Assembly: GCA_907165065.1 (NCBI GenBank)
Contig: OU015523.1
Coordinates: 124,745,023 to 124,809,022, forward strand
Direction of reading: 5' to 3'
From: Caprimulgus europaeus
Lineage: Eukaryota; Chordata; Aves; Caprimulgiformes; Caprimulgidae
Length of the DNA stretch: 64,000 nucleotides
Made by a program: the position numbers and the translations under genes. Positions within the stretch are counted from its first letter, which is position 1. Each line of letters opens with the position of its first letter. Below, in pieces: positions 5,777-62,749 of the stretch. Below the pieces are notes generated by a model. The model was not told where the DNA came from. It saw only the letters and a program-made list of their open reading frames with translations, and did not search any database.

Positions 5777-6035
5777 GTAGGGTTTGAGTTGGAAGGGACC
5801 TCTAAGGATCATCTTAGACCTGTGGGCCTGTCCTTCCTGATGGCCATGGGGAAAGGGTGACAGAGGACTGGAATAAGCTGCCCAGAGAGGGTGTGGAGTC
5901 TCCATCTCTGGAGATGCTCAAACCCACCTGGACACTTTCCTGTGCAAGCTGGTGTAGGGAACGTGCTCTGGCAGGGGGGTTGGACTGGATGATCTCCTGA
6001 GCTCCCTTCCAATGCCCACCAGTGTATTTGTATGA
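5777..6035 (+). mobile_element. Two abutting CR1 fragments in opposite orientation
   Basis: A short minus-oriented piece (5777-5820) is followed by a plus-oriented tail (about 5855-6035) with GGAGTCTCCATCTCTGGAGA and GGGGGGTTGGACTGGATGAT. Confidence 0.75.
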
Positions 6036-6067
6036 GTTTTGCCTGGTTGGTGGGAGAAATGCATTGA

Positions 6068-6124
6068 GCAGGTGGCATCTCCAGTAAGCAGGTGGCATCT
6101 CCAGTAAGCAGGTGGCATCTCCAG
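6068..6124. repeat. 20-bp tandem repeat, 3 copies
   Basis: The unit GCAGGTGGCATCTCCAGTAA starts at 6068, 6088 and 6108; the third copy is incomplete. Confidence 0.95.
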
Positions 6125-7260
6125 CTTTGGCAAAGCTGTTTCAACCACTGCTTTGCCCCAAGTGACAGAACAGGGTGTGGGATGGCTTTTAGCATCATTG
6201 GGGTGGTGAACACCACTGAGCTCATTTTGGGGACCCTCTGCTATTCATTGAGGTGTCCTTCCAGCAGTGTAGTGAGGTCAGCACCCATTAGCTTACCCAA
6301 CTTCACACAACAGGAGCTGGGCACCATGCCTTGGAAAACAACCCCAGGGCACCACAAGGTTTTAAAAGACCCATAAATGCTTCAAGGAGTGTAAATGTCT
6401 CCACTGCCTTTGAGCAACGTCATGGCCTGAACTACCTCACATCCCCTCCATGACAGAACCTTTTTCATCACCTTCACTTTTATTTGGGCTCTAAGCACCA
6501 AAACTTCTAATAACACTCGTGGACAGGTGTGTGCTTATTCACAGGAGAGCTTAAAGCCCTGTCATGTCCCTCTGCTTGGGTGGGGCTTGGGGACACACCA
6601 CAGGAGAGCAGGAGCAGCTGCCAGGCTGCAGTGGAAGTTATGGGGTCTAAGTTCCTGTAGGTCCAGCTAGGGTTGGAGCTTGGTCCTGCAGGATCAGGTG
6701 TTGCTTTTTGATGTGAACCTTAAGGTTGACTGAATTGGGCTTTCTGGCCAAAGTTCTGTGGTTGTTGGTGGTGATCAAGGCCATGGTTTGTCCCACAGGT
6801 CCTACTGCAGGTTGGCCTTGTCCTGCTAAAGTACTGGTGTGTAAACAAGGGCTTGGAGATGAAGGGGGTTGATAGGGACCTGGTAAAATCTGTGGATCTC
6901 CTCCACCAGTTGTGCTGGGCACCATCTCATCCCTCTCCCTGTGCCATGGCAAGGTGAAACTCATACCAGTGTAGGCAGGGCTGGGACATTTCTTGGACAG
7001 GCAGCTCCTGTTCAGGAGCATGACCAGAAACTGGCTCTTCTCAAGATGGTAGGATCAAGGAGGAAGAGAAAAATAAATAGGATTTATGCTTTTGGGGACA
7101 AAAAGTGGTTGAGGTAGGCTTGGTGTCCCCATGGACAGCTCCATAAATCAAGAGCATGGTTCAACCCACTCCAGCCAGACCAGTGTGATGTTGAGCCCAG
7201 TAAAGCCAAGGGGCTGAGGATGGTGGGACAGGACAAGTCAGTATGGTCCTGCTCTGTCCA

Positions 7261-7313
7261 TGGTCTGTCCATGTGCTGATAGTGCTTCTCCAGGGATCCT
7301 TGAGCAAATGAGC
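7261..7313 (+). repeat. Left arm of a perfect 53-bp inverted repeat
   Basis: It is the exact reverse complement of 9098-9150. The two arms lie in the sequence before CHRDL2 exon 2 and in intron 3, so they bracket exons 2 and 3. Similarity stops abruptly at both edges. Confidence 0.97.
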
Positions 7314-7852
7314 TGAAGCTCTTAGGAGGAGCAAAAAGTTTTCCTTCAGAATGTATTTCTACCTAAAATGTCTTTTTTTTTTCTTCTTCTTCTTATGGTT
7401 AACCATGAAAATGTCTCCTCAGTTCAGGCTCTCCCATCTCCTCCACGTCCCCCAGCCCTTCTGGGGAAAATTCAGCTCCATAACATCACCCTGTTTATCT
7501 TCAAACCAACGTTCCTACTGATGGATTTTAGAGAGACAACTCCAATTTATCCCCCAAAATCACCCATTTTGTTCCCTGCAAAGGGACTCTTGCTTGGAGG
7601 AGTTGCTGGTTGGGTCAGATGGGTCCCAGTGTGAAAACAATAAAGAATAAACCAAATAAATAATAATTAAAAAGAGGTTTAGGGAGTGTATTCCATCTGG
7701 GGTTTGGTGGTTGGGATGTGGCCATCAGCTACTCATGGCAAACAACATGAAGGCACTGAGATGTCCATGCTCTTCTCGTTGCAAAGGGAGGAGAGATCTC
7801 CCCAAAAATCGTTCCTTTTTATCTCATGTAGCTTCTCTTGGTTGACTTTCAG

Positions 7853-7965
7853 GGCCAGATATGTTCTGTGACTTCAATGGCAAGAAGTACAGCCCGGGTG
7901 AGAGCTGGCACCCCTACCTGGAGCCCCAGGGGTTGATGTACTGCATCCGCTGCAGCTGCTCCGAG
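7853..7965 (+). CDS. CHRDL2: CHRDL2 exon 2: first half of VWC domain 1
   Basis: The acceptor TTGACTTTCAG precedes 7853. The first two bases complete a split codon, and 37 codons follow, beginning PDMFC and ending CSCSE. The segment [14 protein letters not shown] is strongly conserved in chordin-like proteins. It supplies cysteines 1-4 of VWC1, the half that carries the BMP-contacting region in this family. The exon ends in GAG followed by GCACGT, so the donor appears to be a GC rather than a GT. The GC site is the one that preserves the frame into the next exon and gives the E-N-x-N junction expected between cysteines 4 and 5. Confidence 0.93.
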
Positions 7966-8367
7966 GCACGTCCTCCGTGCGACCGCGGGAGGTGGTGGAG
8001 GTGCTGCATTGGGACATTGCTCTGACAGCTTTTAAGCAGATCAGTTCTGGTGTCTAATTTGACCAGAAAAACCCTTTCCAGTCCCATTGGGATGTTGGAT
8101 TAATCTCTTTTTTATTCAAAAGCCACCCATCCCCACTGGAGGTGTTGGGTTGACCTTGTGAAGGTGCTGTCTCAGTAGCATTGTTGGGCTGTGGGTGGAG
8201 GTGGGACCACAAGTGGTCTTTGATGATGAGAGATGAAACCATGAGCTGGCTGGGTTTGAACCAGGGATGGAGACTGGGTGAGCTACACCAGCACAATCTG
8301 TCATGATAATGTGGCCATCATCCAACATCTTCCTGAATGAACCATCCTTCTCTCCATCTCTCCACAG
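7966..8367 (+). other. CHRDL2 intron 2, probable GC-AG intron
   Basis: A 402-bp phase 0 intron. It begins GCACGT, five of six bases matching the GCAAGT consensus of GC donors, and ends in a pyrimidine-rich tract plus CCACAG. Nothing else recognisable lies inside it. Confidence 0.8.
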
Positions 8368-8461
8368 AATGCCAACATCAGGTGCTACCGGATCCAGTGC
8401 CCGGCTCTGCAGTGTGCCAGCCCCATCACAGACCCCCAGCAGTGTTGCCCACGGTGTCTTG
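8368..8461 (+). CDS. CHRDL2: CHRDL2 exon 3: second half of VWC domain 1
   Basis: Acceptor CTCTCCACAG; 31 codons starting NANIRCYR plus one base, then donor GTAGGT. It contains cysteines 5-10 of VWC1, including the CC pair in DPQQCCPRC. Together with exon 2 it forms a phase 1 to phase 1 cassette holding one complete VWC domain, so skipping both exons would keep the reading frame. Confidence 0.95.
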
Positions 8462-9303
8462 GTAGGTGGCCATCCCATGGGGAGGAGGTGACAAAGTGGT
8501 TGTGGCCCTGCAGAGCATAACCTCAACTGTAGTCACTTGAACACTCATGGTAGTGCAGTGATGCTGGGTCTGGCCTTGCTCATGGCTGCTCTTGTTGCTT
8601 TTTCCCCCCCAAAAAAAAGTCATTTTGATGGAAAAGGGTTTTCTACCTCTCTACCAGACCACTTTCTCCAACTTCTCCCATCCCAAGAAACCTTGTAAGG
8701 ACAAAATGTCAGTTCACAGTTCAAGGACAAAGCAGAAGCTGGCCCATTATTCAGATCATTGGCCAACAGAATGTGTTGGACACAGGAAAACCAAGACAAA
8801 TTTCTGAAGATTCTTTAACAAAATTCTTGAATTTCTCCCTCCCCTGGATGTGGTGACCTCCAACATCCAGAGTCAGACCAAAAGGACTTCTCCCATGGCA
8901 ATTAGCTAATCTATTTTTATTTTATTTTATGAATTTCCTAGATTGTTGATGGTTTTTGACTAGCTTAGCCACCACGCTGGCACCATGGAGGACAAGACCC
9001 CAGGAGGTTGGACATCCAGTTTTACCTTTGTGCTGAGCTCAGTGTGGTCAGGACAGCACTGTTCTCCAAAAGCTTTCAGACATGTAGACTTCCATGGGCT
9101 CATTTGCTCAAGGATCCCTGGAGAAGCACTATCAGCACATGGACAGACCACACTTGGCCACTTCTTCATGATAACTGAAGTGTGGAAAGATCTCCTTTGT
9201 CCTTTTGGGTTGGGCTGGTGAGGAATCTGCTGAGCATCCATGTTAGATCAGGGCCAGGCAAGGGCTGACTCTCATCCTGTTGCTTTCTCCTCTTCTTTTC
9301 TAG
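8462..9303 (+). other. CHRDL2 intron 3
   Basis: An 842-bp phase 1 intron. It carries the right arm (9098-9150) of the 53-bp perfect inverted repeat whose left arm is at 7261-7313. No other repeat was recognised. Confidence 0.85.
9098..9150 (-). repeat. Right arm of a perfect 53-bp inverted repeat
   Basis: Partner of 7261-7313, inside CHRDL2 intron 3. No target-site duplication or transposase frame is associated with the arms. Confidence 0.97.
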
Positions 9304-9446
9304 AGCCACATTCCCCTTCTGGCCTTCGAGCACCCATCAAGTCCTGTCAATACAATGGGACAACCTACCAGCAAGGCGAGATGTTCACCACCAGTGAGCT
9401 CTTTCCCAGCCGCCAGCCGAACCAGTGTGTGCAGTGCAGCTGCTCC
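9304..9446 (+). CDS. CHRDL2: CHRDL2 exon 4: linker and first half of VWC domain 2
   Basis: The acceptor CTTTTCTAG precedes AG, which completes a Glu codon. The 47 codons include SPSGLRAP, the conserved inter-domain linker, and then cysteines 1-4 of VWC2 within KSCQYNG and NQCVQCSCS. The segment [11 protein letters not shown] is strongly typical of CHRDL2. The exon ends after TCC with the donor GTAAGC, phase 0. Confidence 0.95.
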
Positions 9447-12400
9447 GTAAGCTACCTGCGAGCCCACGGGAGGTGGGGAGGGCTTGGGGTGTGCTCCTGC
9501 ACCTCAGTGGTGTCCCACCAGGTCAAAACACTCATGAGGACCATTGGTTGGTACCAGCTCGTGGTGGGATGGTTTATCATCAGGATCAGGTTACTAATGC
9601 AGGAGACTGATCTTCCTCTGAGCTTCCTCTGGAATGGTGCTGGATCCTCCTTGCCCAGCAACTAAGGACCATCACAGAGCTGGGTGCTTCCCCCTCTACC
9701 TGAGTGGGTTATCTGGCCTTGACCCCAAGCAAGATGTGCTGCAAATGTCTGCTGGGCCCTGGGGTCAGGGCATAAAGCACCCACCTGCATCTCCTCCCTG
9801 GTGGGAACAACAGAAACAAGCTGCTCCAAGAGTGGGTCTCCTCAGACAGTTCTTGGTGGACCCCATTGGGGCTCCTTGGTGTGGCCAGGGGGACAACCCT
9901 GTCCCCACTGAGCATGCCAACAAGTGTATTTGCCTGCTGTGAGGACCAGTGCTGTCCCCACAGCAACCAGCTATCCCATCTGCCCCACTGAGGCATCATA
10001 CAACAGATGACCACCAGAGAGGATGACTGGAAGCCTTTCCCCATGAGTGCTTGCTGCAAAGCAGATGAGGTTCATAGCTGGAGGACCTGGGGGAACTCAG
10101 CAGGCCTACAAGGCACCAAGGAGGCCAACTCTTGGGCTTCAGAAGTTCCTGGTACGCTGAGCTCAGTGTTGAGCTGGTGGGACTGAGCTGAGTTCCAGAA
10201 ACTATTTGGTGGCTCCCAAATGCTGCTGAGTGCCTTGGTCTTCTGATGCATCCAGCAGCCAGCTTCTACCCTGCATGGCTGGAGCTCACACCCAACGCAG
10301 CTGGGAGACAATGGCAGAGAGATGGGGGCATTCACAGCAGAGCCTGGCTGCCAGGGATGGCAATGGGCAGATGCCTGGTCATCTTCATCCCTCTTGCTTG
10401 GATTTAAGTGGAAACTGAACCCAAGGCTGAGATGTACTCGAGCACCCAGGTGTCTGGGCTGCACCAGGAGCCAATTGCATCTGGAAACTCCTGCAAGGTG
10501 TTCACCAGCCCTCTGGGCCACCATGTGTGGAGCTGTACCCTGGAGATGTGCACGCGCTTTCCAGGCCTTCTACAAAAAGCATTTCCAGGAGGCATCTGCC
10601 TTTCACATTGAGTTGCAATGACCTTTGCAGGACCATTGCATGCCTATCTTCCTTGATGGACCTGATTGTCCTACCTGAGGGCTGCAACAGTGGCCAGGAA
10701 GCTGTGTGGTCCTAGGTGTGCATCTCTGTGATGGGTTGCCCATCCACCACCCATTGCCAGCACCAGAGGGATGTTCCTTCTCCATGAGCTTCCAGCAATG
10801 CCCTGAGACAAGGTTTGGTTCTGCTCTGCCCAACCCTCTCCCACAGGTTGAGATGCTGTGAAAACCCATCAAAAACCGAGTCCTGACACACTGCTGAGGT
10901 GTGAGGCAGCCTGGCCAGCAGTGATGGGGAAGGTGTGAGGAGCACAGGGCCATGCATGCCAGGAGCTGAGTGTTGGGAGATAAATGGCACAGCTCCTCCT
11001 CCTTGAGAGGGAGTGAGGACAGGGGATGGAAAGTGCCAGCTCTGGACTTGGATGCTGCAGGGAAGGGCTTGCAGCAGCTACAGGCTCTGCCATAAATAAG
11101 AAGAAGGTTGCAGACTTGGCCTTCACGGCCCATCATACAGAGCCCTTGGATCAGACCAAGCTCCACTGGTTTGTGCTTTGCTTGCAACAAATAATTTGAC
11201 CAAGCTTGGCTAGGAAAGAAAAAGAGGAGAGAAAGCCCAAACCACCTCTCTTCCTCATGCCAAGAGCACGCACACGGTGGTTACCATCAGCTGGTGCTTT
11301 GTAGTAAAGTATCTGTGGTACCAGGAGAGATGGTCTGAGCCTTTGGTGCTTGTGCACACCTTGGAGTTAGGTGGCAAGAAGAACAGCTTAGACATTAATT
11401 CTCCAGCTTTTGAGGCTGGTTCCTCTCTTACAGACCCCAACTGGATGTCAGCTCATTAGGTTGGGGACAAACACCAGGAAGGAGCCCTTGAACTCATCTG
11501 TAGGTGCCCACCTGGGAGTTAGGTGGCAAGAAGAACAGCTTAGACATTAATTATCCAGCTTTTGAGGCTGGTTCCTCTCTTACAGACCCCAACTGGATGT
11601 CAGCTCATTAGGTTGGGGACAAACACCAGGGAGGAACCCTTGAGCTCATCTGTACGTGCCCACCTGGTTCTGCTTTCCCACCCCACCCTCCGCTGTCCCC
11701 AGGAGCTCGTGGAGGTCCGTGTCCCTCTGGGAGGCTCTGGCTCTTGCTCAGGCTCTGTTTACTCAGCAGGATGATGCCTTGGATACCAAGGGGAAAATAA
11801 AAGGCTGGTTGTGGAGCCTCGCAGCGCCGGGCTCTCGCCGGGCTGTGTCTGATGCTGTCAGCTGCTGGAACAGCTGCGTGAGCAGCTGGTCTCCACCTCT
11901 TTGAAAACCACCCCGAGACCAGAGCCTCCAGGATAAAGCCTGCTTTTTTATGGACACTTGTTCTTTTCTGCCTGAGGCAGGTCTTCACCATGAGCTGCTG
12001 GTCAGAAGGAGAAAGGGGTTGTGTGGCCAAATCCTGCTCCTGCAGGTCTGGACCCTATGGAGGTCCTTGAAGCAGAGACTAGGGTTTAGTTTGCAGCAAC
12101 TTCCACCTCATCTTCTCTTCTACCAGACTTTCTTCCTCCTCTTCACATCCCCTGCACAGTGTCTTGGCTTCCTGATGGCAGAAGAAACTGCTGTGGTTTG
12201 GTTTTCTAAGGAAATCCTTGGTTAACCTCTTGAGTTTGGTTGACCTGAGAGGTTGAGGATACCCCAAAGAAAATTGCTACCTGGAGAAGAGGACCTTGCT
12301 GTTGAGGTTTGGCTGCTGCTGAGCTGCTGAACATCCTTTTTTTTACCCTTCTACAAAGCAGCAAAAATTTAGCCCTGCAGCAAAGAGGTCCAAATCCATT

Positions 12401-26440: not shown

Positions 26441-27005
26441 AGTTGCAAGATGGCAAAGTCCAAAGACTGGATCTGGTGAGGCCACAGCTCGAGTGCTGGG
26501 TTCAGTGTTGGGCCCCTGAGTCCAAGAAGGACCTGGAGGTGCTGGAGCGTGTCCAGAGAAGGGCAGCGGAGCTGGGGAAGGGTCTGGAGCACAAGTGTGC
26601 TGAGTTCAGGCTGAGGGAACTGGGGGTGCTGAGCCTGGAGAGAAGGAGGCTGAGGGGAGACCTTGTGGCTCTGTCCAAGTCCCTGCAAGGAGGGTGCAGA
26701 GAGGTGGGGGTGGGTCTGTTCAACCAAGGACCAAGGGACAGGACAAGAGGAAATGGGCTCCAGTTGTGGCCAGGGCAGCTGAGATGGGATGTGAGGAAGA
26801 ATTTCTGTGTTGAAAGGGTTCTGAGGCATTGGAAGGGGTTGCCCAGGGCAGTGGTGGAGTCCCCATCCCTGGAGGGATTGAAGAGTTGTGTAGACACAGT
26901 GCTGAGGGACAGGGGTCAGTGGGGACTGGGCAGTGTTGGGTTCATGGTTGGACTCCAGGAGCTTAAAGGTCTTTTCCAATCCAGGCAGTTCTGGGGTTCT
27001 GTGCT
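26441..27005 (+). mobile_element. CR1 LINE fragment, about 565 bp
   Basis: Plus-oriented copy from GGCCACAGCTCGAGTGCTGG through the tail near 27000. An open frame of about 200 codons on each strand is a by-product of the repeat; only the end of the CR1 ORF2/3' UTR is expected here. Confidence 0.92.
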
Positions 27006-43512: not shown

Positions 43513-45180
43513 GGGTAGAGGTGGAGGGTGATGTCCATGTGTGTGTAGGGACCTTGGGTAAGGTGACATCTGTAGTGGTCCTGGGGACAAGGTGGTGTCC
43601 ATGTGCATGTGTAGTGACCATGGGGACAAAGTGACATCCATGTACATGTAGTGACCATGGGGACAAGGTGGTGTCCATGTGTGTGTAGTGACCATGGGGA
43701 CAAGGTGGTGTCCATGTGTGTGTAGTGACCATGGGGACAAAGTGACATCCATGTACATGTAGTGACCATGGGGACAAGGTGATGTCCATGTGTGTGTAGT
43801 GACCCTGGGGACAAAGTGACATCTACATGTATGCAGGGACCCTGGGACAAGGTGGTGTCCATGTGCATGTAGTGACCACAGGGGCCCATAGAGACAAGGT
43901 GACGCCCATGTGTGTGCAGGGACCCTGGAACATGGTGACACCTAGGGGCATGTAATGACCTTGAGGACAAGGTGATGTCCATGTAGTGACCATGGGGAAC
44001 AAAGTGACATCCATTTGTATGTGGTGTTCATTGGGACAAGGTGACATCCAAGTGTATGCAAAGACCTTTGGAGAAGGTGACACCCACATGGTCATTTAGT
44101 GACCTTGGGGACATGGTGACACCCATGTTTGTGCAAAGAACCTGGGACAAGGTGGCACTCATGGGCATGTAGTGACCTTGGGGACAAGGTGATGTCTTTG
44201 TGTATGTAGTGACCATGGGGACAAAGTGACATCCATGTGTACACCAGGACCCTGGAACAAGGTGATGTCCTTGTCCACTATGTGCACATAGTGATCCTGG
44301 GGACAAGGTGACACCCATGTGTGTGCAGGAACTCTGGGACAAGGTGACACTCGTGGGCATATAGTGACCATGGGGAGAAGGTGACATCCTTGTGTGTGCA
44401 GGGAACTTGGGACAAGGCAATGTCCATGTGTACACAGTGACCATGGGGACAAGGTGACACCAACACATACCTAGTGACTGTGGAGACAGGGTCACATCCA
44501 TGTGTCCTTAGTGACCATGGGATGGGATGATGTCCACACATGGCCATGGGGACAAGGTGGTGACATCCATGTGTACACAGTGACCATGGGGACAAGGTGA
44601 CACCAACACATACCTAGTGACTGTGGAGATGGGGTCACATCCATGTGTCCATAGTGACCATGGGATGGGATGATGTCCACACATGGCCATGGGGACAAGG
44701 TGGTGATGTCCATGTGTACAAAGTGACCATGAGGACAAGGTGACACCAACACATACCTAGTGACCATGGGATGATGTCCACACATGGCCATGGGGACAAG
44801 GTGGTGATGTCCATGTGTACACAGTGACCATGGGGACAAGGTGACACCAACACATACCTAGTGACTGTGGGATGGGATGATGCCCATGCATGGTCATGGG
44901 GACAAGGTGGTGATGTCCATGTGTACACAGTGACCATGGGGACAAGGTGACACCAACACATACCTAGTGACTGTGGGAATGGGGTCACATCCATGTGTCC
45001 TTAGTGACCATGGGATGGGATGATGTCCACACATGGCCATGGGGACAAGGTGGTGACACCCATGTGTATGCAGTGACCATGGGGACAAGGTGACACCAAC
45101 ACATACCTAGTGACCATGGGATGTCCACACATGGCCATGGGGACAAGGTGGTGACATCCATGTGTATGTTGTGACCAAGT
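43513..45180. repeat. Minisatellite with higher-order structure
   Basis: About 1.7 kb of a 36-41-bp unit built around GTGACCATGGGGACAAGGTG plus a TGTCCATGTGTGTGTA-type half. The left part (to about 44400) varies in unit sequence. The right part is a higher-order array: the marker CAACACATACCTAGTGA starts at 44461, 44604, 44747, 44848, 44954 and 45097, spacings 143, 143, 101, 106 and 143 bp. Long minus-strand open frames rich in His, Pro and Thr are products of the repeat period and are not genes. Confidence 0.95.
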
Positions 45181-45712: not shown

Positions 45713-45880
45713 TTCTTCTTCTTCTTCTTCTTCTTCTTCTTCTTCTTCTTCTTCTTCTTCTTCTTCTTCTTCTTCTTCTTCTTCTTCTTCTCCTTCTTCT
45801 CCTCCTTCTTTCTCCTTCTCCTCCTTCTTCTTCTCCTCCTTCTTCTCCTTCTTCTTCTTCTCTTTTTTCTTTCTTTCCAT
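45713..45880. repeat. (TTC)n / (GAA)n microsatellite
   Basis: About 26 pure TTC triplets, then an imperfect TTC/TCC mixture to about 45880. GAA repeats of this kind can form triplex DNA. The Glu- and Lys-rich open frames over it are artefacts. Confidence 0.96.
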
Positions 45881-56646: not shown

Positions 56647-56995
56647 AGGGAGAGGGGGGAAAAAGGGGGGGAGGAAGGGGAAAAAAAAGAGGGGGAGGAA
56701 GGGGGGAAAAAAAAAAGAGGGGGAGGAAGGGGGGAAAAAAAAAAGAGGGGGAGGAAGGGGGGAAAAAAAAAGGAGGGGGAGGAAGGGGGAAAAAAAGGAG
56801 GGAGGAAGGGGGAAAAAAAAAGAGGGGGAGGAAGGGGGGAAAAAAAGAGGGGGAGGAAGGGGGAAAAGAAAGAGGGGGGGAGGAAGGGGGAAAAAAAAGG
56901 GGGGGGAGGAAGGGGGACAAAAAAGAGGGGGAGGAAGGGGGAAAAAAAAGGGGGGAGGAAGGGGGAAAAAAAAGGGGGGAGGAAGAGGGAAAAAG
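56647..56995. repeat. 349-bp polypurine tandem array
   Basis: Irregular units of about 20-23 bp (GGGGGAGGAAGGGGG plus a run of A). The only pyrimidine in the tract is a C at 56918. It lies in the last POLD3 intron, so the POLD3 transcript carries the pyrimidine version. Confidence 0.96.
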
Positions 56996-62652: not shown

Positions 62653-62749
62653 TCATATTAACCTTATTCTCAATAGCTTTAAACATTAAAAACAAAAAAC
62701 ATATATTTTTTTTTAATATTTAAAGCTATTGAGAATAAGGTTAATATGA
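62653..62749. repeat. Perfect hairpin with 31-bp arms
   Basis: 62653-62683 is the exact reverse complement of 62719-62749; the spacer is 35 bp of A- then T-rich sequence that can extend the stem with a few mismatches. Confidence 0.96.

What the first reader, a model, noticed from the sequence alone, without database searches (positions are those of the whole stretch)
7261..9150. Perfect 53-bp inverted repeat brackets exactly the VWC1 exon pair of CHRDL2
Seen: 7261-7313 and 9098-9150 are exact reverse complements with sharp edges. Between them lie only exons 2 and 3, which together encode VWC domain 1 and form a phase 1 to phase 1 cassette. Known: complementary sequences in flanking introns favour back-splicing into circular RNA and exon skipping. 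Inference: this locus may make a circular RNA of exons 2-3 (207 nt), or skip VWC1 in frame. Perfect identity of both arms points to a recent origin or gene conversion.
Basis: partly seen in the sequence, partly recalled or inferred. Interest (0 to 1): 0.72.

Follow-up and report, generated by a model that had tools for sequence, protein, structure and literature searches.

The report
Recent inverted duplication around CHRDL2 exons
In what appears to be a bird genome, a 53-letter stretch of DNA beside two exons of the gene CHRDL2 has a perfect backwards copy on their other side; it looks like a recent copying accident that could make the gene's RNA fold back on itself, but nothing here shows that it changes what the gene makes.

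Summary
7261-7313 and 9098-9150 are exact reverse complements with sharp edges. In the 1.18-Gb own genome a 33-nt core with up to 3 mismatches was found only at these two places, and 801 nt and 604 nt around the arms matched only themselves and the opposite arm. So it is not a detectable dispersed repeat. The best exon 1 candidate lies about 1.5 kb upstream of the window; 7853-7965 and 8368-8461 are then exons 2 and 3, an in-frame 207-nt cassette encoding VWC1, and no other exon was found between the arms.

Best explanation: a recent local inverted templated duplication (template switch or break-repair patch), under about 15 My at a recalled rate. A simple inversion is ruled out because exons 2-3 keep the gene's orientation; a transposon is not supported.

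Of 28 intron pairs, intron 1/intron 3 is the only closely spaced one with a strong complementary match, and the arms pair in predicted folds. Back-splicing or VWC1 skipping is plausible but untested: no RNA data were available. In-frame bracketing is expected for about 13% of random placements. I judge it a lineage-specific, probably near-neutral mutation of a known kind.

The parts
7261..7313 (+). Arm A of the 53-bp perfect inverted repeat, in intron 1 of CHRDL2
   Evidence: two places in the own genome
9098..9150 (-). Arm B, exact reverse complement of arm A, in intron 3 of CHRDL2
7253..7273 (+). 11-bp tandem repeat (1.9 copies) that straddles the outer edge of arm A; weak hint that arm A is the native copy
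7853..7965 (+). CHRDL2 exon 2 (113 nt), first part of VWC1; followed by a GC donor
   Evidence: tblastn with recalled human CHRDL2, 86% over 37 aa
8368..8461 (+). CHRDL2 exon 3 (94 nt), rest of VWC1
   Evidence: tblastn hit 8365-8460, 50% over 32 aa; splice sites; Pfam VWC over exons 2-3
9304..9446 (+). CHRDL2 exon 4, the exon that would follow exon 1 if VWC1 were skipped

Best explanation
A 53-bp piece of CHRDL2 intron sequence was copied once, in reverse-complement orientation, from one side of exons 2-3 to the other (about 1.8 kb away) by a replication template switch or by break repair that used nearby DNA as a patch. It happened recently enough that no base has changed in either copy. The two copies now form the strongest close-range complementary pair in the CHRDL2 pre-mRNA. 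They can pair and bring the ends of introns 1 and 3 together, which may give some back-splicing of exons 2-3 (a 207-nt circle) or some VWC1-less mRNA, but most likely with little effect on the gene. Shown here: the repeat, its being confined to two places in this genome, sharp edges, gene orientation of the exons, and predicted pairing. Inferred: the copying mechanism, which arm is the source, the age, and any effect on splicing.
For: 53 of 53 identity with sharp edges. Two copies only at up to 3 mismatches of a 33-nt core in 1.18 Gb, the backwards control pattern giving 0; flanks otherwise unmatched. No target-site duplication of 4 nt or more that I can see at either arm (edges printed). Exons 2-3 lie on the same strand as exons 4-8, against an inversion. 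A second single-copy local inverted duplication, a 31-bp perfect hairpin, lies in the same window, so the mutational class occurs here. Pairing: duplex -110.5 kcal/mol; 50, 52, 53 of 53 arm pairs in folds of three slices; replacing arm B by each of 6 shuffles costs 55.5 kcal/mol on average. Templated insertions that are inverted copies of nearby sequence, and perfect inverted repeats left by template switches, are described in PMC8421209 (passages) and PMC7954356 (passages).
Against: 1.8 kb is further than the tens to hundreds of nucleotides searched in PMC7954356 and the 100 bp in PMC8421209. I see no clear microhomology at the junctions, and the ancestral empty site is unknown because no related genome is held. 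No relative, read set or second haplotype could be examined, so the copy-number change itself is not shown. For the splicing part: there are no RNA data; the GC content here is about 0.5, while the mammalian study PMC8516420 links circRNA parent genes to low GC (passages); and longer-range complementary pairs of intron 1 with the region after exon 8 are much longer (394 nt at 95%) and could compete.
Confidence: 0.75

Rival explanations
1. A functional, selected RNA-pairing element: the arms exist because they drive a circular RNA of exons 2-3 or regulated skipping of VWC1.
For: Exon 2 follows a 9332-nt intron 1; the cassette is in frame; the 207-nt circle would carry an endless frame encoding VWC1. 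Arms of 53 nt exceed the 30-40 nt reported as sufficient for circularisation in three human constructs (stated in review PMC11766002, passages). Matches in flanking introns promoted both back-splicing and skipping in C. elegans (PMC8330042, passages).
Against: No conservation or expression evidence. Perfect identity is explained by recency without selection. In-frame bracketing arises for about 13% of random placements. A search for CHRDL2 with 'circular RNA' listed 9 papers, none with a circular CHRDL2 RNA in its title (listing only).
Confidence: 0.08
2. Two insertions of a low-copy mobile element or other repeat, in opposite orientation, whose other copies are too diverged or too common for the search to show.
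For: Both copies have the same edges, as two full-length copies of one short element would. The genome search warns that very common words are skipped and that no match does not prove rarity.
Against: A 33-nt core at up to 3 mismatches gives two places only; in the window only the two copies pass E 0.1, the next hit being 15 nt at 93%. No target-site duplication seen; no Rfam match in the window at gathering score.
Confidence: 0.1
3. Assembly or sequencing artefact that wrote one arm twice.
For: No reads could be examined.
Against: The contig is 126,318,510 bases long in an assembly of 121 contigs, which suggests long reads; there are no Ns in the window. An isolated 53-bp inverted insertion between unrelated flanks is not a usual assembly error (general knowledge).
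Confidence: 0.05
4. Inversion of the 1784-bp middle with staggered, filled-in breaks, which leaves inverted duplicates at both ends (mechanism recalled, no call).
For: It would explain identical inverted arms with sharp edges in one event.
Against: Exons 2 and 3 read on the + strand like exons 4-8 and the exon 1 candidate; one inversion would have turned them round.
Confidence: 0.01

Closest known systems
Short template-switch mutations / MMBIR-type templated insertions (PMC7954356, PMC8421209; passages seen)
   Same: A short segment copied as its reverse complement from nearby DNA, leaving a perfect inverted repeat in the descendant sequence.
   Different: The template is about 1.8 kb away, beyond the 100 bp or tens-to-hundreds of nucleotides those studies searched; ancestral state and microhomology not established here.
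Class 2 templated sequence insertion polymorphisms (PMC5110952; passages seen)
   Same: A short patch without target-site duplication or poly(A), attributed to break repair.
   Different: Those patches come from distant genomic regions and are thought to be copied from RNA; here the source is 1.8 kb away and inverted.
Reverse complementary matches flanking circRNA exons (PMC8330042, and Liang and Wilusz 2014 as cited in PMC11766002; passages seen, the 2014 paper not read)
   Same: Complementary stretches in the two introns flanking an exon group, of a length reported as sufficient.
   Different: Not a transposon pair (no detectable family); no RNA product shown.

Membership tests
Local inverted templated duplication (template switch / MMBIR) | Reverse-complement copy of nearby sequence, near-perfect, sharp edges | tested here: met
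Local inverted templated duplication (template switch / MMBIR) | Copy confined to donor and acceptor site, not a dispersed family | tested here: met
   within the stated limits of that search
Local inverted templated duplication (template switch / MMBIR) | Absent from the acceptor site in the ancestor | not testable with these tools
   No related genome held (stated); one scan each of viral and prokaryotic collections with CHRDL2 protein found no relative
Local inverted templated duplication (template switch / MMBIR) | Microhomology at the junctions | tested here: inconclusive
   Edges: none beyond what may be hidden inside the 53-bp match; an 11-bp tandem repeat overlaps arm A's outer edge
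DNA transposon or MITE with terminal inverted repeats | Target-site duplication outside the inverted repeats, or copies elsewhere | tested here: not met
   No duplication visible; no further copies found; the interior is native gene with two exons in place
Dispersed interspersed repeat | Many copies in the genome | tested here: not met
   2 places
circRNA-forming complementary intron pair | Complementary stretches of at least 30-40 nt in both flanking introns | tested here: met
   53 bp; the only match above 26 bits between introns 1 and 3
circRNA-forming complementary intron pair | Back-splice junction reads | not testable with these tools
   No RNA data held

The most novel reading that the evidence does not exclude
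A single recent copying error created, in one step and without any transposon, a complementary intron pair that makes this lineage produce a new circular RNA of CHRDL2 exons 2-3 (207 nt, with an endless frame that could encode repeated VWC1 units) and, in step, a CHRDL2 mRNA without its first BMP-binding-type domain.
Probability: 0.2. Interest if true: 0.6.

Novelty: new member of a known kind. Interest (0 to 1): 0.3.

Why it matters
Most known circRNA-promoting intron pairs in vertebrates are attributed to transposon copies. A pair made by one mutation, unique in the genome and perhaps absent in sister species, would be a clean natural experiment: compare splicing with and without the arm in closely related birds or in heterozygotes. 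Without RNA evidence it remains an ordinary recent mutation.

Tried and rejected
Rejected: chance; dispersed repeat; transposon with the arms as terminal repeats (no target-site duplication, no other copies, native exons inside); single inversion (exon orientation); known structured RNA (0 Rfam matches in the window at gathering score).

Led nowhere: looking for CHRDL2 of other birds as contamination in viral contigs (2 pattern matches, none confirmed) and in prokaryote genomes (6 pattern matches, none confirmed); a 27-nt piece of the arm in viral contigs (0). The two longer genome queries, run partly to see whether one arm sits in an older repeat and so is the native copy, matched only themselves and the opposite arm, so the direction of copying stays open. 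Hint for arm A as source: its outer edge lies in an 11-bp tandem repeat, which is natural if A is native. Counter-hint: if A were the insert, its two flanks joined would repeat 10 nt of the arm's interior, which could be a trace of microhomology. Unresolved. A first scan for exon 1 with a strict donor cut-off found nothing in the window; a looser one gave five weak rows, none accepted.

Background: among 26 stretches (254,000 bases: 19 control stretches of 10 kb from the same contig plus the window in 7 pieces), 8 low-copy pairs of at least 25 nt and 90% were listed. In the 190 kb of controls there were 3: one 26-nt near-palindrome and two direct pairs (one a simple repeat); no separated inverted pair. 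In the window there were 5: this pair, the 62653-62749 hairpin and three direct pairs. The sample is small, and pairs across piece borders were not seen; the control stretches come from one contig only. L005, also fetched, was used for exon 1 and not counted.

Full report
Observation. The two arms 7261-7313 and 9098-9150 are exact reverse complements over 53 nt, 1784 nt apart, and the similarity stops at once on both sides. A repeat search of 5-11 kb lists the pair first, the next inverted pair there being 33 nt at 76%. The 53-mer occurs twice in the window at up to 3 mismatches, with no match in 100 shuffles. In a self-comparison of the window, 7 pairs had arms with no other partner; this is the only one of them that is inverted, separated and perfect. 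The others are a hairpin, an 82% inverted pair and four direct pairs.

Genome. The window lies at 124,745,023-124,809,022 of a 126,318,510-base contig in a 1.18-Gb assembly of 121 contigs. A 173-nt query round arm A gives two places, the two arms. A 33-nt core at up to 3 mismatches gives the same two, and the backwards control pattern none. Queries of 801 nt round arm A and 604 nt round arm B match only themselves and the opposite arm. The tool warns that it skips very common words and scores only the best candidates, so this is strong but not absolute evidence against a dispersed repeat.

Gene. Exons 2-3 carry a VWC domain (PF00093, E 9.1e-13); the nearest solved structure by sequence is chordin, 9rd6. 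Exon 1 was sought as ATG plus hydrophobic stretch plus phase-1 donor. Nothing convincing lies in the window. In 10 kb upstream plus the window's start, five rows passed. I chose the third by donor score, at window coordinate -1561 to -1480, because it encodes MLPGAGPLAFLLRCLLLLFASESRARA followed by R-PDMF, close to the recalled human ...ARARPDMF, and lies in the CpG-rich stretch (34, 54 and 17 CpG in successive 500-base steps; other steps of L005 hold 0-9). The two candidates with better donors were set aside on content; had one of them, or any other row of that scan, been right, it would still lie upstream of arm A. Intron 1 is then 9332 nt, intron 2 402 nt (GC-AG) and intron 3 842 nt. Joined exons 1-4 read as one open frame, exon 1 to exon 4 is in frame, and the 207-nt circle has no stop in the VWC1 frame.

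How unusual is the bracketing? Sliding a pair of 53-nt arms 1784 nt apart through the gene, with arms kept in introns, gives 24,027 placements; 7,993 (33%) bracket at least one exon, 3,223 (13.4%) an in-frame set and 790 (3.3%) exactly exons 2 and 3. Exon ends for exons 5-8 were approximate, and exons between 19.7 and 27.2 kb may be missing. The phase-1 cassette is thus a mild coincidence, not evidence of design.

Origin. Perfect identity puts the event late: with 53 sites in two copies, no change is expected to survive at the 5% level beyond 14.9 My at a recalled bird rate of 1.9e-9 per site and year (23.6 at 1.2e-9, 9.4 at 3e-9), unless gene conversion reset it. An inversion with staggered breaks would leave such arms, but exons 2-3 are in gene orientation. 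A transposon would leave a target-site duplication or relatives; neither was seen. What remains is a copy made in reverse orientation from nearby DNA, as described for template switching and MMBIR (PMC7954356 passages; PMC8421209 passages), although over a longer distance than those studies searched, or a break-repair patch (PMC5110952 passages). Microhomology-mediated repair is also invoked for small inversions flanked by inverted repeats (PMC8755829 passages). A second single-copy inverted duplication in the window, a 31-bp perfect hairpin with a 35-nt loop at 62653-62749 (arms read; fold z -14.0; one place in the genome), fits the short-range form of the same process. In 19 control stretches (190 kb) no separated inverted pair of at least 25 nt and 90% identity with low copy number was found, so such pairs are not common, but the sample is too small for a rate.

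Effect on RNA. The arms form a duplex of -110.5 kcal/mol and pair at 50, 52 and 53 of 53 positions in minimum-energy folds of 7201-9300, 6800-9600 and 6001-10000. Replacing arm B by each of 6 shuffles raises the energy of the first slice by 55.5 kcal/mol on average. Global folds of kilobases are only a rough guide. Of 28 pairs of introns, only intron 1/intron 3 (96.9 bits) and intron 1 with the stretch after exon 8 (621 and 314 bits, dispersed repeats 20 kb apart) rise above 32 bits. Literature: 30-40-nt repeats sufficed for circles in three human cases (review PMC11766002, passages; original not read); matches in flanking introns promote both circles and skipping in C. elegans, even a 13-nt match in one gene (PMC8330042, passages). 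Against: circRNA parent genes in five mammals tend to low GC (PMC8516420, passages), while this gene region is about 50% GC. VWC domains of Chordin-like 2 are stated to bind BMPs (PMC6270503, passages), so loss of VWC1 could matter, but no such product is shown. Paper searches for CHRDL2 with 'circular RNA' (9 papers, listing seen) and for template switching with inverted duplication and circular RNA (55 papers with at least four of five terms, 8 listed) showed no title on this combination; that is a weak absence.

Verdict. A real, recent, local inverted duplication; ordinary in kind. The circRNA or skipping idea is testable, plausible and unproven.

Noticed in passing
62653-62749: 31-bp perfect hairpin (arms 62653-62683 and 62719-62749, 35-nt loop), RNA fold z -14.0, one place in the own genome: a second local inverted duplication, or possibly a small-RNA-like hairpin.
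   Followed up: partly
7965-8367: Intron 2 of CHRDL2 begins GC (GAG|GCACGT) and ends AG: a GC-AG intron inside the VWC1 cassette.
   Followed up: no
11352-11667: 152-bp unit in tandem, 2.1 copies, about 95% alike, in intron 4 of CHRDL2.
   Followed up: no
43571-45121: Overlapping minisatellite arrays (periods 37 to 192) built on a GTGACCATGGGGACAAGG-like unit.
   Followed up: no
45713-45861: TTC array, about 49 copies.
   Followed up: no
56660-56994: Polypurine array with a 24-25-base unit, 13 copies.
   Followed up: no
6067-6124: 20-bp unit repeated 2.9 times without mismatch in intron 1.
   Followed up: no
2394-2787 and 26609-27002: 394-nt inverted pair at 95%, copies of a dispersed repeat found several times in the window; it brackets most CHRDL2 exons.
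   Followed up: no
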